Source: a virus. From it: a stretch of DNA of 33,912 bases. This document shows, piece after piece, positions 1 to 33,912 of the stretch (positions within the stretch are counted from its first letter, which is position 1; each line of letters begins with the position of its first letter). The position numbers and the translations under genes were made by a program. The notes beneath the pieces were generated by a model. The model made no database searches. It was given only the letters and a program-made list of their open reading frames with translations, and was not told the DNA's origin. The stretch spans positions 1 through 33,912 of IMG/VR virus record IMGVR_UViG_3300020201_000007; one strand, given 5' to 3'.

Positions 1-85
1 AAAGGGCTGCTGGATGCCTGAAATCAACGAATGGCATCAGCATGTTGTTAGAGTGTCTGATTTTTCCGATCTCGCACACCCGTGA
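1..85 (+). CDS. 3' end of the 110-residue gene, duplicated by the contig join
   Basis: This is the last 28 codons and stop (83-85) of the gene complete at 33538-33870. It is present twice only because the circular contig overlaps itself. It is not a separate or broken gene. Confidence 0.9.
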   Translation, partial: KGCWMPEINEWHQHVVRVSDFSDLAHP

Positions 86-127
86 GAATGAACCAGCGTT
101 CTACTTGCTGAAACAAAACGCCTCGCA
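1..127. repeat. Terminal redundancy, left copy
   Basis: These bases are identical to 33786-33912, so the contig closes into a circle with a unique length of 33785 bp. The length of exactly 127 is a common maximum assembler k-mer, and the join falls inside a coding sequence. Both facts favour an overlap left by circular assembly over a physical terminal repeat. Confidence 0.95.
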
Positions 128-14052: not shown

Positions 14053-17000
14053 TCATGCGATTCTGACAGCTCGCACAGTAAAGTAATAGCTGCCAGTGAA
14101 GCCGGAATGGTTCGCAGCAAACAGTTTCCCTCGGAGGTTGTAGCTTGTAGCAGCGGGAACTAATACTGTCGTCGTATTTGCTCTTGAGTCCGCACCGCCT
14201 GATGATGCAGTCGCCGTCCAGCCTAAGTTCCCACCGCTCAGGTTAACTGTAGGCCCCCACCCGTCGGTAGTGTCAGTGGTCAACACACCAACCCGCAACC
14301 CAGACGTCGTTCCGCTTGTAGCTTCAATGTCCATTGAAAAAGAGACAAGCCAGAGCCCAGAGCCGATTGTGCACTCGACGACACTCCCGTTGAGCGCCCA
14401 TCCTGTCGTTACTGCCGTGTTCGTAACGAAACTTCTAAGCGCCGAGCCGGTTTTCACTTCCCCGACATACCCCGCAGGCTGCGCAAGTCCATCTGTGCGC
14501 CCGACAATGTTAGGTGAGCCTATAGGAAACCCGACAACTTGGCCGCCGGATACTTTTTCGACTCTGTAAAAACCTGCCGATGTCGACCAGCTCGCACCAA
14601 CCTGCGGCCTCTGCTCGAACGCCATTGTTAATTGAGTATTAGAACCCGTTACTGATTCAAGGCCCATTCCTGCGGTTCCGACAACCAGTTCGATTGTAAA
14701 AAACCCTGGGAGCCCAGCTCCGATGGCTGGTATCCAAGGCCCTGATTGCGCTCTCGCTACTGTGATTAAAAAAACATCCGTCGGCTGAATAACTGTCGTA
14801 AACTGAAGCCGTTTTCGCCTTTTTGCTGTTAACGCAACGGGCAATGATGAGCCCATTGCACCGTAGGCGAATGCTACTGTATTGTCCGCATCGGTAGTGT
14901 CGCTGTTACTGGCGTACTCTGAGACACTCCTATCACCCGCTGTTACGTTACTCGACCAGCCGACGATGGGGATTATAACATCAAGAGTTACTGACATGTT
15001 AGCTGACAGCGCAACAGGAACCGTTGCGTTCCAGTCACCTTGCCCATTCGGCCCGTATGGCGTCATTTGTCTCGATGTGTTAAGAAGCACCCTTCCCTTC
15101 CAAAGCGTGCCCGTTGCCGTATTGACAATACTAGCTTCACCTACCCAAGCATTGTTCGTGCCGAATCCGCCTTCCTGCGCTGGTATCTTGGTAAAGTCTG
15201 GCGTTAATTCTGCCGGAAGTGTGAAAACTTGAGTGCCGTAACCTGATGCTGCTGTTACTTTTACGACCGTCCGAATGTGAGCGTTTTGGCCAATTCTGGA
15301 ATACACACTCGCGACCGTTGGAGTTGCGCCAAAACCTGAAACAGTGATGCCTGTGGTTATGATTGGGTCGGTCAAAGCACCCGTCTGCATCAACACTTGC
15401 GGCCCAGTGAATAAAGTGTCGAATCGCACCGCTACACTGCCTGCTAGGCTTCTCGGTCTCACTGCATAAAGGTCAGAAGGAGTAATGCTATCTGGCACCC
15501 AGAAGCCGTTAAATTTTGATGTTCCCGTTGGGAGTTTTGCACTAGGAGGAGTTGCCGCTGATGCGTTGCCTGCAACGCTTATAATGCTTTGGTGAACACC
15601 CGATGAGTTGTACCTGACTACGACTACATCCCAATTTCCATCAGCAGTAACGCCGAGAATATCGAAGTTCAACATCACTGGTTTGCCGAGGTCTGCACCT
15701 TCAAGAGCGAAGGCGGGGAACTGCACAAACGATGTACCTGTTGAGTTAGATGTCAGTGCTGTTGTGAGGTAGTTTGTAGTCCCTCTTAAGTCTGAGTTTG
15801 TTGAGCTTGTAACAGCAGATGCACCAGCATCTGTACCCGTATAAAACGCAGTTAAAGAAACAAGGTTAGCGGTTGTTGAAGCAAGGTTTGAAACTGTTCC
15901 AGGAGCTACAGCAGCATTAGCATACGCTCGAAGATAGTTCTTAACCGGCTGCTCATTAAGGCCGCCACCGATACTCTGCCAAACACTGTTACTGTATCCT
16001 TCGAACTCGTTGGCATCGGTATTGTGACGTATCATCCCGACAGTAGTTAGGCCCGAGCGGTTAGCTACTGTTCCCGACGGTATTGCAAGAGCACCTGTGA
16101 TTGCTGCCGTTGATGAAACTACGGTCTTATTCAAGAGCGTTTCAGTGGCATCTTGAGTTACAATAACACCTGAAGCTGGGAATGTAGCAGTCGAGGTGAT
16201 GCCCGTTCCACCGCGTGTTCTGTCGAGCAGCGCTTCACTCGAAAGCACACCTCCGGCCGTGTTGATAATGACATGGTTTGCCGTACCCACTGCGAGTTTT
16301 GTTCTCGCAATCGCGGCCGCTGAGTTGATATCAGCGTTCATTATTGAGTCATCTACAATGTTTGCAGAGGCAATTGTTATTGCCGTCGGCAAAGCGCCAG
16401 TAGCAAGTTTTGACAGAGCAATTGCTGCTGAAGCGTTCACATCAACATCCATTATTGAATCGTCGACGATATTAGCCGACGCGATTGTGATTGCTGTTGG
16501 CAGAGCACCCGTTGCTAGTTTCGAAAGTGCAATAGCAGCGGAAGCGTTAATGTCTGCATTGAGTATTGTGTTTGAAAGAGCAAGTTTTGAATACGCAATA
16601 GCTGCTGACGCGTTGATGTCGGCATTTACTATCGTGTTTGAAAGAGCAAGTTTCGTGTAAGCAATTGCTGCTGAAGCATTTATGTCTGCATTGACGATTG
16701 AATCGTCGACGATATTCGAACTGTTGACTGTGATGGCTGAAGGCAAAGCGCCGGTAGCTAATTTTGATAGTGCGATTGCCGCTCCTGCTGCAACGTCCGC
16801 ATCTAAAAGAAGAGCAGAAGAAAAAACACCGGTCGCGCTAGATTTTACCAAACCTACGCCCAGAGTGTTAACTCTCATTGATGAGAATTGAGGGTTAAGG
16901 CCTACAAAGTCAGATTGAATTTTCCAACCATCACCGTCAAATTGAGCGACAATACCACCGAAGTTGTCATTGATAACAAAGCTTGCCGAGCCGTTAATTA

Positions 17001-17331
17001 ATTGGCCGCCGGTAGCGGTAACGGTAATATTGTTCGTTGCAGCGTCACCCTTAGCGTCAATGACTGAATAAAGAATTCCAGTCACACCAGCGGGAAATAC
17101 TACTGATACCGCGCCCGGTGTTGTTAGATTCACGGCCACTGCATAATCTGTCGCAGTGAAGTTTACAGGGGTTGTTAGTGCCGTACGGATTGCCTGTCTC
17201 TGCACTGTAGTTGTCGCTGCGCTTGCGCCGAGCGCTTGCAGATACGCCGTTAGATTTGTCGCCCAACCATTTTCACCGGCCACCGATGGGATCGAGTATG
17301 TCACGCCCGCAAAGGACACGTTCACTGCCAT
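14053..17331 (-). CDS. Tail fibre / receptor-binding protein, 1092 residues
   Basis: The largest gene. The start at 17331 (MAVNVSFAG) follows AAGGA; a start at 17367 lies inside the terminator region and is unlikely. Domains in order: an N-terminal beta-rich part likely to attach to the tail; a shaft with six degenerate copies of a repeat around A-(D/x)-(I/V)-NASAAIA-(Y/L)-(S/T)KLA, alternating with spacers that include NIVDDSI; a Ser/Thr/Ala-rich beta middle; and two C-terminal jelly-roll-like parts ending ANHSGFTGSYYFTVRAVRIA. Trimeric fibres commonly show such repeats. No lyase or sialidase motif is obvious, and no intramolecular chaperone is recognised. It would recognise the host surface. 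Confidence 0.8.
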   Translation of the reverse strand: MAVNVSFAGVTYSIPSVAGENGWATNLTAYLQALGASAATTTVQRQAIRTALTTPVNFTATDYAVAVNLTTPGAVSVVFPAGVTGILYSVIDAKGDAATNNITVTATGGQLINGSASFVINDNFGGIVAQFDGDGWKIQSDFVGLNPQFSSMRVNTLGVGLVKSSATGVFSSALLLDADVAAGAAIALSKLATGALPSAITVNSSNIVDDSIVNADINASAAIAYTKLALSNTIVNADINASAAIAYSKLALSNTILNADINASAAIALSKLATGALPTAITIASANIVDDSIMDVDVNASAAIALSKLATGALPTAITIASANIVDDSIMNADINSAAAIARTKLAVGTANHVIINTAGGVLSSEALLDRTRGGTGITSTATFPASGVIVTQDATETLLNKTVVSSTAAITGALAIPSGTVANRSGLTTVGMIRHNTDANEFEGYSNSVWQSIGGGLNEQPVKNYLRAYANAAVAPGTVSNLASTTANLVSLTAFYTGTDAGASAVTSSTNSDLRGTTNYLTTALTSNSTGTSFVQFPAFALEGADLGKPVMLNFDILGVTADGNWDVVVVRYNSSGVHQSIISVAGNASAATPPSAKLPTGTSKFNGFWVPDSITPSDLYAVRPRSLAGSVAVRFDTLFTGPQVLMQTGALTDPIITTGITVSGFGATPTVASVYSRIGQNAHIRTVVKVTAASGYGTQVFTLPAELTPDFTKIPAQEGGFGTNNAWVGEASIVNTATGTLWKGRVLLNTSRQMTPYGPNGQGDWNATVPVALSANMSVTLDVIIPIVGWSSNVTAGDRSVSEYASNSDTTDADNTVAFAYGAMGSSLPVALTAKRRKRLQFTTVIQPTDVFLITVARAQSGPWIPAIGAGLPGFFTIELVVGTAGMGLESVTGSNTQLTMAFEQRPQVGASWSTSAGFYRVEKVSGGQVVGFPIGSPNIVGRTDGLAQPAGYVGEVKTGSALRSFVTNTAVTTGWALNGSVVECTIGSGLWLVSFSMDIEATSGTTSGLRVGVLTTDTTDGWGPTVNLSGGNLGWTATASSGGADSRANTTTVLVPAATSYNLRGKLFAANHSGFTGSYYFTVRAVRIA
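16285..16812 (-). repeat. Fibre shaft repeats, six copies
   Basis: The coding repeats encode AAIA-x-(S/T)KLA six times. Three units carry a long spacer with TGALP(S/T)AIT and NIVDDSI; others carry the short spacer ALSNTI(V/L)N. Similar DNA in adjacent copies (for example around 16360-16450 and 16450-16540) would let recombination lengthen or shorten the shaft. Confidence 0.8.
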
Positions 17332-17348
17332 TATTAAAATTCCTTTAT

Positions 17349-17397
17349 AAAAAAAACCCCGGCGCACCGAACCAAGAAACGATTCTGAACACCGGGG
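17349..17397 (-). terminator. Intrinsic terminator after the major capsid gene
   Basis: Read on the minus strand, CCCCGG (17397-17392) and CCGGGG (17362-17357) pair with further wobble pairs inward, and are followed by eight T (17356-17349). It lies 20 bases after the capsid stop and just before the tail fibre's ribosome site. It probably trims transcription so that capsid protein is made in excess over the downstream tail proteins. The loop is long (about 29 bases before inner pairs), so efficiency may be partial, as needed if one promoter serves the whole block. Confidence 0.75.
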
Positions 17398-24300: not shown

Positions 24301-24591
24301 CTATTCGGAATTTCCTAAGAGTTGAACCGTCAAGGGAATACTTGACGATTGAAGGCCCTTTCCCGTTTTCGATTCTGTTATAAATCTAGTTTTAAATTCA
24401 GGTACGATTTTCCCTTTCATCAAAATGTTGAACTCTTCGCTTGATACTGTTTTCCAACTCTGTTCATTTTCATCGAAAACCTGAATTTTTATTAGCGCGC
24501 CTTCGGGCATGTCAATGCTAAAACTAACGCGTTCTTTCCGCTCTGGCGGCTCTGGGATAGTGACCAGCGGCTCGTATTCTTCTTCTATCAT
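24301..24591 (-). CDS. Unknown 96-residue protein, MIEEE series 1
   Basis: Begins MIEEEYEPLV, sharing its first 13 coding bases with the genes starting at 24758 and 24962. A Pro/Glu-rich opening (TIPEPPERKE) leads to a beta-rich body (RVSFSIDMPEGALIKIQVFD) that could be a small beta-sandwich. No signal peptide or catalytic motif. It overlaps the upstream stop by ATGA. Function unknown. A 54-bp gap with GGAG separates it from the endolysin gene. Confidence 0.65.
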   Translation of the reverse strand: MIEEEYEPLVTIPEPPERKERVSFSIDMPEGALIKIQVFDENEQSWKTVSSEEFNILMKGKIVPEFKTRFITESKTGKGLQSSSIPLTVQLLGNSE

Positions 24592-24758
24592 CTTCTCTGT
24601 TCCTTCCTGTTTTTCTCTTTCCTTTTTCTTTTGAGCGTTTTCTTTTTATTATCCTCTCTCATCCTTTTCTGTTTTTCGTCTTCTGTTTTTTCTTTAATCC
24701 GTTTTTGTTTTTCTTCCTCAGATATTTCTTTACTATCGTCGCTCTCTTCTTCTATCAT
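24588..24758 (-). CDS. Highly charged 56-residue peptide, MIEEE series 2
   Basis: A small coding sequence set by overlap: ATGA with the gene at 24591, and three bases after the stop at 24762. It starts MIEEESDDSKEISEEE and turns into an almost purely Lys/Arg/Glu helix (KQKRIKEKTEDEKQKRMRED, then RKRKEKNRKEQRR). It would be a long single charged helix, acidic first and very basic last, perhaps nucleic-acid binding. Purine-rich composition could mimic coding, but the exact overlaps and the shared start sequence support a gene. Confidence 0.6.
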   Translation of the reverse strand: MIEEESDDSKEISEEEKQKRIKEKTEDEKQKRMREDNKKKTLKRKRKEKNRKEQRR

Positions 24759-25158: not shown

Positions 25159-26451
25159 TCACTCTCTTTCGGTATCCGATGTCTTGAATGAATTCGGCGC
25201 AATCCATTTTTCGCATTTCCCGCTACTCAGCGGGATTTTAAAATCAAGACTAAAGTCGCTCGTCGTTGCGGTTAACATTTCTTTCTGACAAATCGCCCTT
25301 GAAATTTCAACTATTCGATTTGCCAACTTCCATGCGAGTAAGGGGGGAACAGCATTTCCAATTGCTTTGTATGATGAAGAGGCGCTTGTGACCCCTACGA
25401 ATTCAAAGTCATCAGGGAATGTTTGTAGTCGCGCACATTCACGCACAGTGAGTCGTCGTTGCTGAAATTTTGTCTCTTCCAATTTGTTGTTAATTCCACC
25501 ATTTTGAGCGGACAAACGACGAAATTCAATGTTTCCATGATGTTCACTTCTTATTGTTGGAGCAGGCCTATCAATTCTGACTTCAATTTGACCTTGAGAA
25601 CCATTGTCTAAATATCTACATTTAGAAAAGTGCTGTTGAGATTGATCATCCGATTGATTAGGTTCATCTAGTCCACTGAATGCATATTTTGTCGTCGGGA
25701 CTATTCCTTGATTTCCAAGGTGGGACTTATCGGGAAAAAACGATGGCAATTGTTTTAAAAACACCGCTCTTTCGAAATTTTTTGCGATATCATCGATTCT
25801 TACGCCGATTACAATCAGCCTTTCCCGTTTCTGTGGGATACCATATTCGGCACAATTGACCAGTTGCCACTGGACTGAATAGCCCAAGTCTTTCAGTCGA
25901 TTCTTCAAGTCTGAAAAGACGGTACCATTCTCTGCCGAAAGGAGACCTTTCACATTCTCAGCAATTATAAATCTTGGCTGGAGCTGCTCAATTGCTTTTA
26001 ACATATATATATAGAGTGACCCCCTAGACACTTTGCTTGAAGTGTTTATTAGTCCTGTGTGACTACGATGAGATAACGTGCCTCTTCTTGCCCCAGCAAA
26101 ACTGAAATCTTGGCAAGGAAATCCTCCCGATACAAGGAATGGCCGCTCGAAAGACTTTAGCACTTGAGACTCAACTATCTCTACAATACTTTGCGACTCG
26201 TACTGCCCTAGCCTACTCCTTTTATTAAAGTATGCCTTATGAATATCCATAGCTGAAGTACAAATATCATTGATAAATACCGTTTCTATCCCCGTGGATT
26301 CAAGCCATATTTTTCTTGTTTTTCCGGTTCTCTTTAAATCCAGATAGCTACTAAACGTCTCAAATCCGCCCTCGATCCCCAGATCCATTCCACCACAGCC
26401 TGAAAAAAAAGAAAAATGTCGCATTGTGCCTACATTTGTTTCTTTAGTCAT
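25159..26451 (-). CDS. C5-cytosine DNA methyltransferase
   Basis: A 430-residue Dcm/HhaI-type enzyme that transfers a methyl group from S-adenosylmethionine to cytosine. Motif I is FSFFSGCGGMDLG (residues 13-25), motif IV GGFPCQDFS (109-117) with catalytic Cys113, motif VI ENVKG (165-169), motif VIII QKRERLI (207-213), motif IX RRLTVRECARLQTFPDDF (332-349) and motif X YKAIGNAVPP (361-370). All are intact. The target-recognition part lies at about 245-330 and its site cannot be read. No restriction endonuclease gene is adjacent, so it likely protects phage DNA from host restriction. By eye it is more AT-rich than its neighbours, a hint of separate acquisition. ATGA overlap with the upstream paralog gene. 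Confidence 0.93.
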   Translation of the reverse strand: MTKETNVGTMRHFSFFSGCGGMDLGIEGGFETFSSYLDLKRTGKTRKIWLESTGIETVFINDICTSAMDIHKAYFNKRSRLGQYESQSIVEIVESQVLKSFERPFLVSGGFPCQDFSFAGARRGTLSHRSHTGLINTSSKVSRGSLYIYMLKAIEQLQPRFIIAENVKGLLSAENGTVFSDLKNRLKDLGYSVQWQLVNCAEYGIPQKRERLIVIGVRIDDIAKNFERAVFLKQLPSFFPDKSHLGNQGIVPTTKYAFSGLDEPNQSDDQSQQHFSKCRYLDNGSQGQIEVRIDRPAPTIRSEHHGNIEFRRLSAQNGGINNKLEETKFQQRRLTVRECARLQTFPDDFEFVGVTSASSSYKAIGNAVPPLLAWKLANRIVEISRAICQKEMLTATTSDFSLDFKIPLSSGKCEKWIAPNSFKTSDTERE

Positions 26452-26690
26452 TGTTCACTTTCTACTTGCTCGATAGCGTCGACTAAAGAGCACGGCAAAA
26501 TTCTTCCGCCGTTACCCGGAATACCATCAATCTTTATATCGACTACATATCTAGTACCGATGTGCATGAACCATTCGTTCTCGTAATCGTCCTTTTCGTA
26601 TCTCCAAAAGAAACCGAAATCATCTTCGAAAACTGCGCCATTATCAGGCTTTACTCTTTCAGAAAACTGAGTCCACGATTCTTTAATCAT
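26448..26690 (-). CDS. Tandem paralog A (short, N-module only)
   Basis: The 80-residue last copy of a five-gene tandem array, and the most diverged. It keeps W-x-QF-x-ERVKP at residues 6-15, the F-x-D-x-x-G-x-x-W element, and PCSLVDAIEQVE at the end, then stops at SEQ without the C-module found in copies B, C and E. It contains extra aromatic and charged residues in the variable middle. Function unknown. Probably soluble. It shares one base with the start of B (TAATG) and four with the methyltransferase. Confidence 0.8.
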   Translation of the reverse strand: MIKESWTQFSERVKPDNGAVFEDDFGFFWRYEKDDYENEWFMHIGTRYVVDIKIDGIPGNGGRILPCSLVDAIEQVESEQ

Positions 26691-27046
26691 TATTCAACCC
26701 AAATTTCCTTCGTTATACGATTGCCGCTTTCGTCGAGCGCTTGTGTCTCATAAAGGTCTACGTCATTGCGCCAGTAAAAACCTACCGTATTTATGTAACA
26801 GTAAAACGTTATTTTCTTTAGCTTCGGCTTTTCGACGTTCTCAATTGCATCGACCAAAGAGCACGGTATAAAATTACCGGCGGAAATTGGGGAATCTGAA
26901 GCCTGAATGCTCACATCCATCTTGGGCATCAGATTAAAGAAGCCGTTACACCAATAGCACCACTCATTCCCATAAATATCTTTAAATTTTTGCCCATGGG
27001 CAGGCTTAACTCTCTCTGCAAATTGTGACCATGTTTCTTTAATCAT
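26690..27046 (-). CDS. Tandem paralog B (N- and C-modules)
   Basis: A 118-residue copy with both modules. N-module: ETWSQFAERVKPAHGQKFKD, a variable middle, then AGNFIPCSLVDAIENVE. C-module: KPKLKKITFYCY, an aromatic variable part, and ETQALDESGNRITKEIWV. The DNA for the last part (26697-26734) is identical over 38 bp to that of copy E (27633-27670), while the rest differs, a sign of recent conversion or duplication. The function of the family is unknown to me. Its start overlaps copy C by eight bases. Confidence 0.82.
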   Translation of the reverse strand: MIKETWSQFAERVKPAHGQKFKDIYGNEWCYWCNGFFNLMPKMDVSIQASDSPISAGNFIPCSLVDAIENVEKPKLKKITFYCYINTVGFYWRNDVDLYETQALDESGNRITKEIWVE

Positions 27047-27398
27047 GGTCTATAACCCAAACGTCTTTAGTTATCCGCTCGCCGTTCTCGTCTAGAGCCT
27101 GCGTCTCACTATATACTGAGTTCTTGCACCACAAAAACCCTGACACACCTAAGTAACAGTAATACGTTATTTTCTTTAGCTTTGGCTTTTTGACTTGTTC
27201 GACGTGTTCGATAGCATCGACGAGAGAGCAAGGAAGAATTTTACAGTACAGACCTTCTTTCATGAGTGTCGTTTCATTCGTGTCTTGCGTGAAATCGCCA
27301 TCGTGGTGTCTCCAAACTTCACCGTAAATATCCTTAAATATCTGCCCGAATGAAGGATTAACTCTCTCGGCGAATTGCGTCCATGTTTCTTTACTCAT
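27039..27398 (-). CDS. Tandem paralog C (N- and C-modules)
   Basis: A 119-residue copy with both modules: ETWTQFAERVNPSFGQIFKD and ILPCSLVDAIEHVE, then KPKLKKITYYCYLGVSGFLW and ETQALDENGERITKDVWV. The middle of its N-module (residues 30-50) is quite different from B and D, so this segment varies fastest. The C-module retains Tyr and Trp positions. Both junctions are eight-base overlaps, at 27039-27046 and 27391-27398. Confidence 0.82.
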   Translation of the reverse strand: MSKETWTQFAERVNPSFGQIFKDIYGEVWRHHDGDFTQDTNETTLMKEGLYCKILPCSLVDAIEHVEQVKKPKLKKITYYCYLGVSGFLWCKNSVYSETQALDENGERITKDVWVIDHD

Positions 27399-27624
27399 TG
27401 TCTTCCCTTTCTACGTGCTCGATAGCGTCGACCAAAGAGCACGGTATGAAATTTCCTGCCGAAATATTGGTCATGCTAGCGGAGATACCTACATCTTCAT
27501 GCGTAGTCAGATAAAAATACTGGTACCTGGAATAAAGCCAAACTTCACCGAAAATATCCTTGAATTGTTGGCCAACTTCAGGCTTCACTCTGTCTGCAAA
27601 TTGTGCCCATGTCTCTTTACTCAT
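27391..27624 (-). CDS. Tandem paralog D (short, N-module only)
   Basis: A 77-residue copy that ends after AGNFIPCSLVDAIEHVE with EREDNE, so it lacks the C-module. Its end resembles the end of copy E (NDNE), including the overlap sequence, as if an internal deletion had joined the module end to the gene end. It is otherwise well conserved (ETWAQFADRVKPEVGQQFKD). The N-module alone is therefore probably a folding unit. Confidence 0.8.
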   Translation of the reverse strand: MSKETWAQFADRVKPEVGQQFKDIFGEVWLYSRYQYFYLTTHEDVGISASMTNISAGNFIPCSLVDAIEHVEREDNE

Positions 27625-27973
27625 TGTCGTTCACCCAAATTTCCTTCGTTATACGATTGCCGCTTTCGTCATACGCGATAGGCCAGCCCACGTTATCATC
27701 TGTGTTAAAATAATAAGCAGTCATAAACAGGTAAGCGTAGAGCGTTACCTTCTTAAGCTTCGGTTTCTCAACGTGATCCACTGCGTCAAGCAGAGAGCAA
27801 GTTATGAAATTACCCTCGTCAGTTAATCTAGGCGAAATGCTTATTTCAAGCTCAGGAAGAAGAGAAAACAATCCGTAATTATAAAGCCAATCGTTGCCAT
27901 AAATATCTTTAAATTGTTGATCATCTACTGGCTTCACTCTCTCGAAAAATTGTTTCCACGTTTCTCTAGTCAT
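27617..27973 (-). CDS. Tandem paralog E (N- and C-modules)
   Basis: The first copy in transcription order, 118 residues. N-module: ETWKQFFERVKPVDDQQFKD and GNFITCSLLDAVDHVE. C-module: KPKLKKVTLYAYLFMTAYYF and YDESGNRITKEIWVNDNE. Its core has drifted (T for P before Cys, LLDAVD for LVDAIE) but its last codons match B exactly at DNA level. The start ATGACTAG overlaps the HTH gene's stop by eight bases, tying the array to that regulator. Confidence 0.82.
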   Translation of the reverse strand: MTRETWKQFFERVKPVDDQQFKDIYGNDWLYNYGLFSLLPELEISISPRLTDEGNFITCSLLDAVDHVEKPKLKKVTLYAYLFMTAYYFNTDDNVGWPIAYDESGNRITKEIWVNDNE

Positions 27974-28422: not shown

Positions 28423-28541
28423 AGTTTTCTCGCTCTTCTAAATTGTTCAATTGACTTAATATCGTTAACGCTAGCCTTTCTTTCTCGAACGAAAAAGAGC
28501 GCTATCAAAACACCTATTGCGACGCAAAATATTTCAAGCAT
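28419..28541 (-). CDS. Single-span membrane peptide, 40 residues
   Basis: A small gene fixed by overlaps at both ends: ATGCTTGA with the RecT-like gene (28534-28541) and ATGA with the next gene (28419-28422). MLEIFCVAIGVLIALFFV is a clear membrane helix, followed by a basic tail (RERKASVNDIK). The function is unknown. Its presence within the recombination operon is unexplained. Confidence 0.6.
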   Translation of the reverse strand: MLEIFCVAIGVLIALFFVRERKASVNDIKSIEQFRRARKL

Positions 28542-29211
28542 TTTCTGCGCCCTTCATGTGTTGCGCAAGACTACTTTTTTTCGTCTCTTGTGCGGCAGTA
28601 GTGTCTTCCCATTCATCGCTTGAGTGCATACCGATAATCACCTCGGGGAAATGAAAGCGAGCCAAAAAAGTTGCCGCGCGGTATCTCATCATCACTTCTG
28701 GCATTGTCTTATATTTCGGATTCTTCGTCCAACCTTCCGCTACGACCATCGACCAGGGCACAGTAAAGCTAATTTCGTCACCCTGTTTCAGCATCCCAAA
28801 AGCAGTTACAGAAAGCGTTTCGCCTTTACCTTCAATCCTAAAACGAACTGGCCCTGATAGGCTTCCAGAGCGGTTAATCAACGCAATAATTAGCGCACCA
28901 GAAAGACCGGGCTTACCTGAAACTATGTGAATATTCTGCAATGCCGTCATGGGGTCTAAATCCATTCGATACGCCATTTGAAGAGCAACAAAACAGTTAT
29001 CCGGCTGACCTTGAAAATGAGGTGGCACCATCTTCGAATTAGAGAAAATTTGAGCTACCCGCATAAGCTGCCCAAACGTTGTCGGCACTAGGCCCGTCTT
29101 CGGGTCAAAAGGCGTGCTGTCGACGTGCTTCGATTCGTCGGGAACGACTATTGTAGGAACGGTGTCTTTAAGTACTGTCGAGTGTTCGATTGCTAACGTT
29201 TCGTCATTCAT
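28534..29211 (-). CDS. RecT-like single-strand annealing protein, 225 residues
   Basis: The central part matches the RecT family pattern: PPHFQGQPDNCFVALQMAYR, DLDPMTALQNIHIVSGKPGL, then GALIIALINRSG and PWSMVVAEGWTKNPKYKTMP, with MMRYRAATFLARFHFPEV near the end. These proteins anneal complementary strands made by a partner exonuclease. The partner is the gene just upstream, which overlaps it by eight bases. The length is near the usual RecT range but at the short end. It likely promotes recombination-dependent replication and concatemer formation. Confidence 0.85.
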   Translation of the reverse strand: MNDETLAIEHSTVLKDTVPTIVVPDESKHVDSTPFDPKTGLVPTTFGQLMRVAQIFSNSKMVPPHFQGQPDNCFVALQMAYRMDLDPMTALQNIHIVSGKPGLSGALIIALINRSGSLSGPVRFRIEGKGETLSVTAFGMLKQGDEISFTVPWSMVVAEGWTKNPKYKTMPEVMMRYRAATFLARFHFPEVIIGMHSSDEWEDTTAAQETKKSSLAQHMKGAENA

Positions 29212-30034
29212 TTTCGTCTATCCAATATTGTGGTGCTGTTAAAATCATATGTGTTGTATTCGGGTCGAATTGTGCGTCACCGGTCGCTCTGGCTTGCTGA
29301 AACTTGCGGTAATTCTCAATTGCTTTTTCAACGACGATATTAGCGCAGCGCATGGTATCGTCGTCTATCGTCATGACTCTTGCGGTGTAAGGAGGTACTG
29401 TCTGGAACATAAAAAAAACAAACGGCCACGATTCAGTTTCTGGCCTTATTTTCGACATGCCTCGTTTGTACCACGCTGCCTGAAGAGGGTATCCGTATTT
29501 CAACGCGTGAAAGCCTAGCGACCGTTCAGAAAAATCATCCGAACATGTCTTGATGTCGACCAGCAGTCTGTATCTTTCGCTCACGGCATCAATGAGCGCC
29601 TTGCCGTGAAAGCCGTCTTCGTCCCAAAGATAGGCTTGCTCATTTTTTGAGCACATCAGAACGTCCGCGCCCAAGCTTTTAATGATGTTGAAATATGAAT
29701 TTTCGATCTGCGAGAGCACCCGGCTATCGTGAGGTTTCAACCAGTGTTTCACATCTGGCATGCTCTTTTTTAAAGCAATTCCTTCTTTAGTCGCGAAACT
29801 AACATCATGCTGCAATATGTGGCACTCTTCACTAAATCTTTTTGGCTCAAGAAATTTCATATGCACGATGGAACCAAGGTCTAGGGCTGCGGAGCCTTTT
29901 TTAGGGCTCTCAAGCGATGATGCATAGTGCGCCGGACTCTTGGCGAGTAATTTAATCGCTGATGAGCCTACCGCCGTCAAATCGTGGTAATCGGCTTCGC
30001 TGATATCTCGCTGATGTCCAAAAGTCCGATTCAT
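29204..30034 (-). CDS. RecE-like PD-(D/E)XK exonuclease
   Basis: A 276-residue nuclease of the exonuclease VIII/DUF3799 type. It shows YHDLTAVGSSAIKLLAKSPAHY at the start, DLGSIVHM with His58, Asp149 (KALIDAV), the core LLVDIKTC with Asp160 and Lys162, and YPLQAAWYKRG with Gln185. The set is intact, so it should resect double-stranded ends. It pairs with the RecT-like protein. The length equals the catalytic C-terminal domain only; the long N-terminal part of E. coli RecE is missing, as in most phage versions. The start overlaps the HTH gene's stop by ATGA. Confidence 0.85.
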   Translation of the reverse strand: MNRTFGHQRDISEADYHDLTAVGSSAIKLLAKSPAHYASSLESPKKGSAALDLGSIVHMKFLEPKRFSEECHILQHDVSFATKEGIALKKSMPDVKHWLKPHDSRVLSQIENSYFNIIKSLGADVLMCSKNEQAYLWDEDGFHGKALIDAVSERYRLLVDIKTCSDDFSERSLGFHALKYGYPLQAAWYKRGMSKIRPETESWPFVFFMFQTVPPYTARVMTIDDDTMRCANIVVEKAIENYRKFQQARATGDAQFDPNTTHMILTAPQYWIDENE

Positions 30035-30261
30035 GCTTCACCGGCAAGCTTGAGGTCGACGAATCGCCCGTACTGCAATTCGATCTCTCGCAGTTCGGCT
30101 TTTAGAATCGACATTATCGCGGCTAAGTATATCGCCCTTATCGGACGCTCCGAGCGCATCCAAGTCCCGACTGTCTGTCGCGAAACTCCTAACTCTTTCG
30201 CAATTAACGCTTTCCCTACAAAACGTGATGTGAACAATAATATCTCGGCATCGACTGTCAT
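30031..30261 (-). CDS. Mini helix-turn-helix regulator next to the origin region
   Basis: A 76-residue Cro/C1-type protein: helix-turn-helix FVGKALIAKELGVSRQTVGT (about residues 14-33), then WMRSERPIRAIYLAAIMSIL. The ribosome site AAAGGGG precedes ATG. It is the first gene of the recombination operon and faces the 511-bp noncoding region, so it may bind there and control its own operon. There is no N-terminal protease-cleavage or C-terminal oligomer domain, so it is not a typical lambda-type prophage repressor. Confidence 0.75.
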   Translation of the reverse strand: MTVDAEILLFTSRFVGKALIAKELGVSRQTVGTWMRSERPIRAIYLAAIMSILKAELREIELQYGRFVDLKLAGEA

Positions 30262-30522
30262 TAATTCCCCTTTCTGGTGCTATGAAACTAATTCATAAAC
30301 GCACAAGAACGAATAAGTCAATAAGATATGTTTTAAACACTGCGATCCGTATCCAAGAAAAAAACGTACCTTAAACTTTTTTCTATATTTTTTAGTCTGT
30401 CACTTTACCGATGTTAAATATGTAATGGCTTATTATTACTAAGCTTATTCCTTTGAAAACACCGTTTTACCCCTATTTTAGAGCACTTTCCCTTTTTCAA
30501 CTGTCTATTATCATTAAGGAAT

Positions 30523-30537
30523 AGGCTATATTAGCCT
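30523..30537. promoter_or_regulatory. Perfect inverted repeat AGGCTA-TAT-TAGCCT
   Basis: A 6-bp perfect dyad with a 3-base spacer inside the noncoding region, about 260 bp upstream of the HTH gene and 36 bp from the first repeat. It could be an operator for one of the small HTH proteins. There is no T-run beside it, so it is not a terminator. Confidence 0.35.
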
Positions 30538-30573
30538 CTTGTAACAACTATTCTATACATATACTCTATATTC

Positions 30574-30751
30574 TTGTACCACTTGTACCACAGAGAAAAA
30601 AGAAGAGAGATATATAAGAAAACACTGAAAAACACGTGGTCCAAAACGTGGTACAAGGTGCGGTCCAGATTTTTCGGCTCGTACCACGTTGTGGTCCAAT
30701 GCTGATTGTGGTCCTGATTTTAAAATGAGGTGATTAGAATTTTCGGACCAC
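30574..30751. repeat. Iteron-like cluster of GTGGT(C/A)C sites
   Basis: Eight exact copies occur in 178 bp. GTACCAC is at 30576, 30585 and 30681; GTGGTCC at 30636, 30691 and 30708; GTGGTAC at 30648; and GGACCAC at 30745. An imperfect GTGCGGTCC lies at 30658. The first two are tandem nine-base units (TTGTACCAC at 30574 and 30583), and 30681/30691 face each other. Two strands and mixed spacing fit an initiator-binding array. With random bases, well under one copy would be expected in this length. Confidence 0.7.
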
Positions 30752-30772
30752 GGGATTGGTCAGGCTTTGAAT

Positions 30773-32227
30773 TTACTGATCGCCGTCAAGAAAGGTTTCA
30801 GACATTGCTCGAAAAATGCTGTCACCCCTGAAAGATACGTTCAAGAAACCCCAAAGGTAGGGGTCAAGTCTGCCGCCCAGTCGCTTTTTCTGGTAGACAA
30901 CTTGATGAGTATCAGCCCCTAAACTTGGCACTGCGTGAAGGGCGTTTTCTGGGTTGCAAACGTGCGCGATTCGCTCGAAAATATCTTTTTGAAATAGGTG
31001 GGCAGGGATATTCGCAGCGATGGTTTGCTTCGGCATGAAGCCGCCTTTGCTATACTTGAAATGCTTGTAGATCCAGCCGTCGACCTTCAAATAAAAGTTA
31101 GTGATATTAGGCTCTAACTGCTCTGCTGTCATTTTTGAGAGATTGCGACCGGAGGCATGGAATACAGAGCAAGCAGCTCTAACAATGTTCTCGAAATTAG
31201 CGTCCAAATCGGCCGCCGCTTGCTCTTGGCTCATCTGTTCATCGTCGGCCACTGACTGACTCTCTATGAGCAGAACGCGTGACCTACTGGCTTTTTTTCC
31301 GTCAATTTCAAGACTTTCGTTCGTCGTTATCCAGATCATCGAATTGTTCGGAAACTGAACATAATCTTGATACAATCTACGAGCCTTAAGCGTCGGACAT
31401 CCTACGATTCTTTTCAGGTTAGCGCTGATTAGTTTCCCGTGGGTCGGCTCCTCAAAATGAACCAATCTTTTACCATAAAACTCGGCTTTTCCAACATCAG
31501 TAGCAATTGAGCTGATATCCGTATTAATCGATGAGGTGCGGCCTAGCCGACGCCCGAGCCAGTCTATGAACGTGGTCTTTCCATCATCCCCGTGGCCGTG
31601 CCAAACGACTACACGTTTTGGTGAGGTACTAGTCATGATGAGATAGCCCAGAGCATTCAAAAAGTGCTCAAAACTGTCTCCCACCATATTTTTCTGCAGT
31701 GTCTGCATGAACTGGCCACACGAGTTAGCGTAGTCTTCAATGGTGGCGAATGGGTCAATTGAGCCGACGGAAAAATCAAAGTCGAGCCGACAAAACGTCA
31801 AACTTGGGTCGCTTTTAAACGTGATTGGCTTAATCGTTTCAGCAATGAGCCTGTCTTCATAAATTAATCCGAAACTCTCCGCGTGCTGCAAAACCGATTT
31901 TATTTGGTGAAGGATTTCGCGGGCTTCCTTCTCCGAAAATCCGTTTTCCGCACCGTACTTTTTAGCTTTTTCAGCGTGCAACAGCACTTGAATCGAGGCA
32001 GCAGTTAGGCTTGCAACTATCTCATTATCGAAAAGCGGTTCCAACTCGTTTCGAGCGTTGAGACGAAAGAATTCGACTTGCGCGCCGGTAACTCTAGCTC
32101 TCCAATCGACAGAGACATATGTCTTGTCAATGAAAGCGCCGAACCCGAAAAACCATTGCTTAAGGTAAGCTTTAAATTCGTTTCGAATATCCCTAGAACT
32201 GTTGACTTTCGCCTTCTTCTCGTTCAT
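30773..32227 (-). CDS. Superfamily 3 replicative helicase (D5/P4-like)
   Basis: 484 residues from ATG at 32227, chosen because AAGGA lies just upstream; an in-frame GTG at 32242 would include that site. Helicase motifs: Walker A GHGDDGKTT (residues 211-219), Walker B LVHFEEP (255-261) and motif C MIWITTNES (297-305). A C-terminal winged-helix part probably follows (residues 370-480). The N-terminal 190 residues show no obvious primase catalytic motif, so it may be a helicase without primase activity or carry a worn primase domain. It would unwind the origin next door and recruit host replication proteins. Confidence 0.87.
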   Translation of the reverse strand: MNEKKAKVNSSRDIRNEFKAYLKQWFFGFGAFIDKTYVSVDWRARVTGAQVEFFRLNARNELEPLFDNEIVASLTAASIQVLLHAEKAKKYGAENGFSEKEAREILHQIKSVLQHAESFGLIYEDRLIAETIKPITFKSDPSLTFCRLDFDFSVGSIDPFATIEDYANSCGQFMQTLQKNMVGDSFEHFLNALGYLIMTSTSPKRVVVWHGHGDDGKTTFIDWLGRRLGRTSSINTDISSIATDVGKAEFYGKRLVHFEEPTHGKLISANLKRIVGCPTLKARRLYQDYVQFPNNSMIWITTNESLEIDGKKASRSRVLLIESQSVADDEQMSQEQAAADLDANFENIVRAACSVFHASGRNLSKMTAEQLEPNITNFYLKVDGWIYKHFKYSKGGFMPKQTIAANIPAHLFQKDIFERIAHVCNPENALHAVPSLGADTHQVVYQKKRLGGRLDPYLWGFLNVSFRGDSIFRAMSETFLDGDQ

Positions 32228-32259
32228 AAATTCCTTGCACACAGCAGTGTATTCCGTAG

Positions 32260-33537: not shown

Positions 33538-33870
33538 ATGACAGTTATCAAAACCAACGAATATAGCTCGAACAATGCGCGGCTACACTACGAAAACACC
33601 GGCCTTGAGATTACAATCAACAACGACTTTTGCGATAAGCTTGGGTCAAGTCCGGAGGATCTGGTCGAGTTAGCTGAATCATCTGACTTAGAGACGTTCC
33701 TAAACGCTCTACCGTACCAAAACGAACGAGCAGACTGGGAAGAGGCAGGCACTGAAGTCTATGAAGACATTAGAACATATTGCGAAAAGGGCTGCTGGAT
33801 GCCTGAAATCAACGAATGGCATCAGCATGTTGTTAGAGTGTCTGATTTTTCCGATCTCGCACACCCGTGA
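33538..33870 (+). CDS. Unknown 110-residue acidic protein
   Basis: Not recognised. It opens MTVIKTNEYS after the third shared leader. It is strongly acidic (PEDLVELAESSDLETFL, then ADWEEAGTEVYEDIRTY) and ends with MPEINEWHQHVVRVSDFSDL. No membrane span. High acidity, small size and an early, separately controlled position are seen in some DNA-mimic or host-takeover proteins, but this is only a resemblance. The gene crosses the contig join; its last 85 bases are repeated at 1-85. Confidence 0.75.
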   Translation: MTVIKTNEYSSNNARLHYENTGLEITINNDFCDKLGSSPEDLVELAESSDLETFLNALPYQNERADWEEAGTEVYEDIRTYCEKGCWMPEINEWHQHVVRVSDFSDLAHP

Positions 33871-33912
33871 GAATGAACCAGCGTTCTACTTGCTGAAACA
33901 AAACGCCTCGCA
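33786..33912. repeat. Terminal redundancy, right copy
   Basis: Identical to bases 1-127. It covers the 3' end of the 110-residue gene that starts at 33538 and the first part of the spacer that continues at 86-168. Anyone counting genes should collapse the two copies. Confidence 0.95.

What the first reader, a model, noticed from the sequence alone, without database searches (positions are those of the whole stretch)
30574..30751. Iteron-like GTGGT(C/A)C array beside the helicase gene: probable origin
Eight exact seven-base copies and at least one imperfect copy fall in 178 bp of noncoding DNA. A rough estimate with equal base frequencies is about 0.04 copies by chance (two 7-mers, two strands, about 180 positions). 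The array abuts an AT-rich segment and the SF3 helicase gene. The second half of the helicase or one of the mini-HTH proteins could be the binder.
Basis: partly seen in the sequence, partly recalled or inferred. Interest (0 to 1): 0.7.

Follow-up and report, generated by a model that had tools for sequence, protein, structure and literature searches.

The report
Phage replication origin beside its helicase
The repeated seven-letter DNA words lie just after the gene for this virus's DNA-unwinding enzyme and look like the place where copying of its DNA starts; unrelated viruses carry different words in the same place, a layout so far described mainly in phage parasites called PICIs.

Summary
The array is real. 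Eight exact GTGGT(A/C)C words plus one GCGGTCC lie at 30576-30751, just past the 3' end of a 489-aa SF3 (D5/NrS-1 class) helicase gene. It is the densest short-word cluster in the contig (8 in 176 bp; resampled sequences reach at most 5). Two and seven copies flank a 73% AT segment. Related phages with helicases about 20% identical carry other words at the same place: TGGTAAC x11, GGTAACA x11, AGGTGAC. So do six named phages, including phi105, T25 and AmM-1. In a survey of homologues, 16 of 35 3' flanks had a significant array, against 1 of 27 5' flanks and 3 of 36 coding stretches. The neighbouring YdaS-like HTH gene does not track the arrays. This is the published anatomy of SaPI/PICI and SCCmec origins, where the helicase's C-terminal domain binds iterons directly downstream of its own gene. 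Best reading: the phage's replication origin, bound by its own helicase. Binding and origin activity are inferred; a winged-helix C-terminus could not be shown for this helicase. It is a new member of a known kind; the wider point is that this layout also occurs in ordinary tailed phages.

The parts
30745..30751 (-). iteron 1 GTGGTCC (closest to the helicase 3' end)
   Evidence: exact match
30708..30714 (+). iteron 2 GTGGTCC
   Evidence: exact match
30691..30697 (+). iteron 3 GTGGTCC
   Evidence: exact match
30681..30687 (-). iteron 4 GTGGTAC; with iteron 3 an inverted pair GTACCAC-GTT-GTGGTCC
   Evidence: exact match
30660..30666 (+). iteron 5, imperfect GCGGTCC
   Evidence: one mismatch
30648..30654 (+). 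iteron 6 GTGGTAC
   Evidence: exact match
30636..30642 (+). iteron 7 GTGGTCC
   Evidence: exact match
30592..30635 (.). AT-rich core (73% AT, contains ATATATAAGAAAA) between the two iteron sets; candidate melting site
   Evidence: role inferred
30585..30591 (-). iteron 8 GTGGTAC
   Evidence: exact match
30576..30582 (-). iteron 9 GTGGTAC, 9 bp from iteron 8 (10-mer CTTGTACCAC repeated)
   Evidence: exact match
30262..30572 (.). further AT-rich noncoding DNA between the array and the HTH gene
   Evidence: 65-74% AT by segment; no ORF of 50 aa or more confined to it
30773..32242 (-). SF3 (D5/NrS-1 class) helicase, 489 aa, proposed initiator that binds the array
   Evidence: phrog_1156 1.5e-25 and DUF5906 1.7e-10; core about residues 166-360 modelled mostly above pLDDT 80 and matched to NrS-1, AsfvPrimPol, papilloma E1 and SaPI5 PriRep1
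30031..30261 (-). 76-aa YdaS-like HTH protein; rival binder
   Evidence: phrog_35 1.2e-4; Pfam YdaS_toxin 4e-5, below that family's cutoff
29204..30034 (-). exonuclease VIII-like (DUF3799, PDDEXK) gene, downstream operon
28534..29211 (-). RecT-like annealing protein, downstream operon
   Evidence: phrog_561 1.1e-62

Best explanation
The array is the replication origin of this phage, and the phage's own SF3 helicase is its initiator. The helicase is made from the gene just upstream, and its C-terminal part binds the GTGGT(A/C)C words, two on one side and seven on the other side of a 44-bp AT-rich core. Many adjacent words are spaced about 9-12 bp, near one helical turn, so neighbouring subunits can sit on one face of the DNA and build hexamers. 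ATP-driven unwinding opens the AT-rich core and loads the helicase without a separate loader. Priming and synthesis are then done by other proteins, probably the host's, because no primase or polymerase gene was recognised among the window proteins examined. Shown here: the array, its layout, its recurrence beside related helicases with different words, and the SF3 core. Inferred: binding, melting, self-loading and origin activity.
For: (1) Densest short-word cluster in the contig; a 127-bp terminal repeat suggests the contig is a complete genome. (2) Same place, different word, in relatives joined through the terminase: TGGTAAC x11 starting at the helicase stop in G006, GGTAACA x11 in G041 and AGGTGAC in G013/G012, with helicases about 20% identical to this one. 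(3) In six named phages with a noncoding gap after their D5-type primase-helicase (phi105, AmM-1, Listeria LP-HM00113468, T25, LilyPad, phiSP119-3) the gap holds such an array, reached by 0-1 of 300 resamples; where whole genomes were scanned the gap held the top cluster in T25, phi105, phiSP119-3, AmM-1, G006 and G041. (4) Survey: significant arrays in 16/35 3' flanks, 1/27 5' flanks, 3/36 coding stretches (Fisher p about 2e-4 and 4e-4). (5) Opposed iteron sets around an AT-rich core, e.g. +++/--- in T25 and +++++/---- in L154. (6) SF3 fold hits include SaPI5 PriRep1, an initiator of this kind. (7) Published: SaPI Rep recognises iterons directly downstream of its gene through its C-terminal domain, and the Cch2 C-terminus binds repeats downstream of cch2 (PMC7581432); PICI origins are two iteron sets flanking an AT-rich region 3' of rep (PMC6092414).
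Against: No binding or replication data. The helicase's last 130 residues are modelled with low confidence and did not match a C-terminal profile of the wider family, so the presumed DNA-binding domain is unproven. Two related helicase groups, the Silvanigrella phage and G022-G026/G036/G038, have no array 3' of the gene, and about half of the surveyed 3' flanks have none by this test. The window's two iteron sets are unequal (2 and 7), and orientation inside the larger set is mixed. The GC-skew minimum lies at the array only because of the noncoding bases; without them it moves to 32509.
Confidence: 0.8

Rival explanations
1. The array is an operator cluster: the YdaS-like HTH protein (30031-30261) or another small HTH protein binds the words to control the HTH-exonuclease-RecT operon.
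For: The HTH gene is next to the array and starts about 315 bp from the nearest word; a weak promoter-like site lies at 30459-30432 on the correct strand.
Against: No homologue of this HTH protein was found in G006, which has an 11-copy array beside its helicase; arrays track the helicase across phages with different neighbours. Promoter-like sites are no more frequent than in shuffles.
Confidence: 0.1
2. The words are priming sites: start sequences for a primase-polymerase once the region is open. This could coexist with the origin reading.
For: NrS-1 primase-polymerase starts at 5'-TTTGGTTA-3' and 5'-GTGG-3' (PMC8718748), which resemble GTGGT here and TTTGGTAAC in G006; CCPol-MP primes at the SCCmec repeats (PMC7581432).
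Against: No primase domain was found in this helicase and no primase or polymerase among the other window proteins scanned. Words in other phages (ATGACGGAT, GGGAGGC, TTGGAAG) share no such motif.
Confidence: 0.15
3. The words form RNA hairpins that end or process the helicase transcript.
For: A 21-bp imperfect inverted repeat (30637-30657/30678-30698) and one weak terminator-like stem at 30650-30633.
Against: Terminator-like sites are no more frequent than in shuffles (2 against 2.6); no Rfam match; a hairpin explains neither 9 scattered copies nor the different words in relatives.
Confidence: 0.03
4. Chance cluster.
For: Exact 7-mers alone are only mildly unusual in this gap (14 of 300 resamples).
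Against: 0 of 40 genome-wide and 0 of 200 local resamples reach 8 copies of any one-degenerate 7-mer; same place in relatives.
Confidence: 0.01

Closest known systems
SaPI / PICI replication origin with Rep (PriRep) initiator helicase
   Same: SF3 helicase gene followed directly by short iterons in two sets around an AT-rich region (PMC6092414, PMC7581432); SaPI5 PriRep1 is among the fold hits
   Different: The window is a phage with its own terminase, P22-like portal and other structural genes, not a satellite; sets are unequal (2 and 7); C-terminal DNA-binding domain not demonstrated
SCCmec Cch2 helicase and its downstream repeats
   Same: Self-loading helicase proposed to act on repeats 3' of its own gene; the published repeat TACCACTTAAT resembles GTACCACTT here (PMC7581432)
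   Different: Cch2 has three repeats and works with CCPol-MP encoded in the same operon; no such partner seen here
Phage P4 alpha protein with ori and crr iterons
   Same: SF3 helicase of the same superfamily with short iterons; from memory the P4 iteron is GGTGAACAG, close to GGTGACAG in G013
   Different: P4 alpha carries a primase domain, absent here; P4's second site crr has no counterpart found here (from memory, not tested further)
pRN1 replicon (ORF904) and phage BIP-1
   Same: Essential origin sequence just 3' of the SF3 replication gene (PMC4234260)
   Different: Origin there is a long stem-loop, not iterons
Lambda-type origin (O protein iterons)
   Same: Short iterons beside an AT-rich region recognised by a phage protein
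   Different: Lambda's iterons lie inside the initiator gene and the initiator is not a helicase (established knowledge); here the array is outside the gene

Membership tests
SaPI/PICI-type initiator-helicase origin | initiator is an SF3 helicase | tested here: met
   phrog_1156, DUF5906, 39-sequence SF3 profile E 2.7e-30, fold hits
SaPI/PICI-type initiator-helicase origin | iterons lie immediately 3' of the helicase gene | tested here: met
   nearest word ends 21 bp before the gene's 3' end at 30773
SaPI/PICI-type initiator-helicase origin | two iteron sets flank an AT-rich region | tested here: met
   2 and 7 copies around 30592-30635, 73% AT; sets are unequal
SaPI/PICI-type initiator-helicase origin | C-terminal dsDNA-binding domain reads the iterons | tested here: inconclusive
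   C-terminal 130 aa at low pLDDT and no profile match
SaPI/PICI-type initiator-helicase origin | helicase + iterons support autonomous replication | not testable with these tools
   needs experiment
PICI as a mobile element | satellite that lacks its own capsid, portal and large terminase genes | tested here: not met
   terminase large subunit and P22-like portal present; structural genes shared in order with other phages
P4 alpha-type replicon | primase and helicase fused in the initiator | tested here: not met
   no primase domain in the 489-aa protein
Lambda-type origin | iterons inside the initiator gene | tested here: not met
   array lies in a 511-bp noncoding gap
DnaA-dependent origin | DnaA boxes at the origin | tested here: not met
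   no exact TTWTNCACA in 30262-30772

The most novel reading that the evidence does not exclude
Probability: 0.5. Interest if true: 0.6.

Novelty: new member of a known kind. Interest (0 to 1): 0.4.

Why it matters
It gives a probable origin for an uncultivated phage lineage with a P22-like portal and a simple rule for finding origins in phages with an SF3 initiator helicase: look just past the helicase stop codon for opposed short repeats around an AT-rich core. If the rule holds, the layout is not a PICI trademark, which bears on whether satellites took their origins from phages. The varied words paired with varied helicases also offer natural material for decoding how the helicase C-terminus chooses its DNA word.

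Tried and rejected
Close relatives of the helicase: the first viral-contig scan with the single protein found none; reached instead through the terminase. Sequence search of solved structures with the helicase: no hit. First structure model with 6 sequences was poor; a 37-sequence alignment gave a good core but a poor C-terminus. A C-terminal profile from the 39-homologue set did not score the window's C-terminus above shuffled sequences, so the winged-helix claim is not made. DnaA boxes, tRNAs and Rfam families: none relevant. GC skew: global detrended minimum at 30591, 69 bp from the array midpoint, but in a broad trough and dependent on the noncoding bases; in other genomes the minimum lies 0.5-2.5 kb away in G006, G041, G013 and phiSP119-3 and far away in T25, phi105 and AmM-1; treated as weak. 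Resampling in my scripts used first-order Markov sequences, not exact shuffles. Word choice was post hoc, which the degenerate-word scan is meant to cover. The 35-locus survey mixes prophages, satellites and viral contigs, and its loci are not fully independent.

Full report
The finding.

There are eight exact copies and one imperfect copy between 30576 and 30751, in a 511-bp noncoding gap. Four read GTGGTAC, four GTGGTCC, one GCGGTCC. A scan of all 7-mers with one two-fold position finds this cluster as the densest in the contig (8 copies in 180 bp), against a maximum of 5 in 40 resampled genomes and 200 resampled gaps. The gene beside it points towards the array: the helicase is on the minus strand (30773-32242), so the array follows its stop codon. 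Adjacent copies are spaced about 9-12 bp in several places. Two copies (30576, 30585) and seven copies (30636-30751) flank a 44-bp segment of 73% AT. The contig has a 127-bp identical repeat at its ends, which suggests a complete, circularly mapping genome; this is an inference, and the length also fits an assembler overlap.

The genome. It is an IMG/VR virus record with a P22-like portal, terminase, RecT, exonuclease VIII-like and methyltransferase genes. Its structural genes match in order those of several IMG/VR contigs and of a phage of Silvanigrella aquatica (CP017838).

The helicase. It matches DUF5906 and phage primase families through its SF3 core. The modelled core (about residues 166-360) is confident and resembles NrS-1, AsfvPrimPol, papilloma E1 and SaPI5 PriRep1. 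No primase domain was found. The last 130 residues are not confidently modelled and do not match a family C-terminal profile.

Relatives decide the question. Helicase homologues were found in 13 of the records searched, nearly all of them terminase-related phages. Besides the window, three independent helicase lineages have an array directly 3' of the gene, each with its own word: TGGTAAC x11 in G006, GGTAACA x11 in G041 and AGGTGAC in G013/G012. G020 has 11 copies of TGCGACA 3' of a DUF3987 helicase. Two helicase groups have no array there. A more distant viral contig, L127, shares the window's word almost exactly (TGTGGTCCA and CGGTCCA).

The layout is wider than this family. Seven annotated phages hit by the helicase were examined. 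Six have a gap of roughly 270-490 bp after their primase-helicase gene, and all six gaps hold a significant array; the seventh, RR1-A, has no gap. In the whole genomes scanned, the gap held the top cluster in six of seven. In a survey of 36 homologues from bacterial genomes and viral contigs, 16 of 35 testable 3' flanks had a significant exact-heptamer array, against 1 of 27 5' flanks and 3 of 36 coding stretches. Several show clean opposed sets, such as +++/--- in T25 and +++++/---- in L154.

What is known. In SaPIs the Rep helicase recognises, through its C-terminal domain, iterons found directly downstream of its gene, and SCCmec Cch2 binds repeats downstream of its own gene (PMC7581432). 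[quoted passage not shown] pRN1 also needs sequence just 3' of its SF3 replication gene, there a stem-loop (PMC4234260). The window matches the SaPI/PICI anatomy but is a phage in its own right. Subscription literature on phage origins could not be searched, so earlier single reports of such origins in tailed phages may exist.

Rivals. An operator for the neighbouring YdaS-like HTH protein is possible, but arrays follow the helicase, not this gene. Priming sites are possible in addition, given that NrS-1 primase-polymerase uses TTTGGTTA and GTGG (PMC8718748). RNA structure and chance are unlikely.

Verdict. Probably the phage's replication origin, read by its own SF3 helicase. Anatomy and recurrence are shown; binding, melting and origin activity are inferred. 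As a kind it is known; its presence across ordinary tailed phages is the part worth following.

Noticed in passing
window 1-127 and 33786-33912: Identical 127-bp terminal repeat, also found at the ends of G006; suggests complete genomes.
   Followed up: partly
window 26448-27973 (-): Five tandem ORFs start with similar M-(K/R)E(T/S)W-QF--RV-P sequences and several share a C-terminal motif: a small tandem paralogue family.
   Followed up: no
window 16517-16695: 66-bp tandem repeat, 2.7 copies, inside the 1104-aa ORF 14053-17367, giving repeated INASAAIAYTKLALSNTIVNAD-like segments.
   Followed up: no
window 24573-24732: Overlapping tandem repeats (61 and 36 bp) across a Lys/Glu-rich small ORF.
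   Followed up: no
L046 2653-3015 (G020): TGCGACA array 3' of a DUF3987 helicase gene: the same layout with a different helicase type.
   Followed up: partly
L047 36-353 (G021): AGGTCACAA array at a contig end; the neighbouring gene is missing.
   Followed up: no
L127 3950-4210: Distant helicase homologue followed by an array of CGGTCCA/TGTGGTCCA, nearly the window's own word.
   Followed up: partly
L027 6944-7044 (G003): Five copies of AACAGGAT within 100 bp in a related phage in which no helicase homologue was found.
   Followed up: no
window 25159-26451 (-): DNA methyltransferase gene; the GTGGTCC iterons contain GGTCC and the GTGGTAC ones GTAC, so methylation of the array is an untested possibility.
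   Followed up: no
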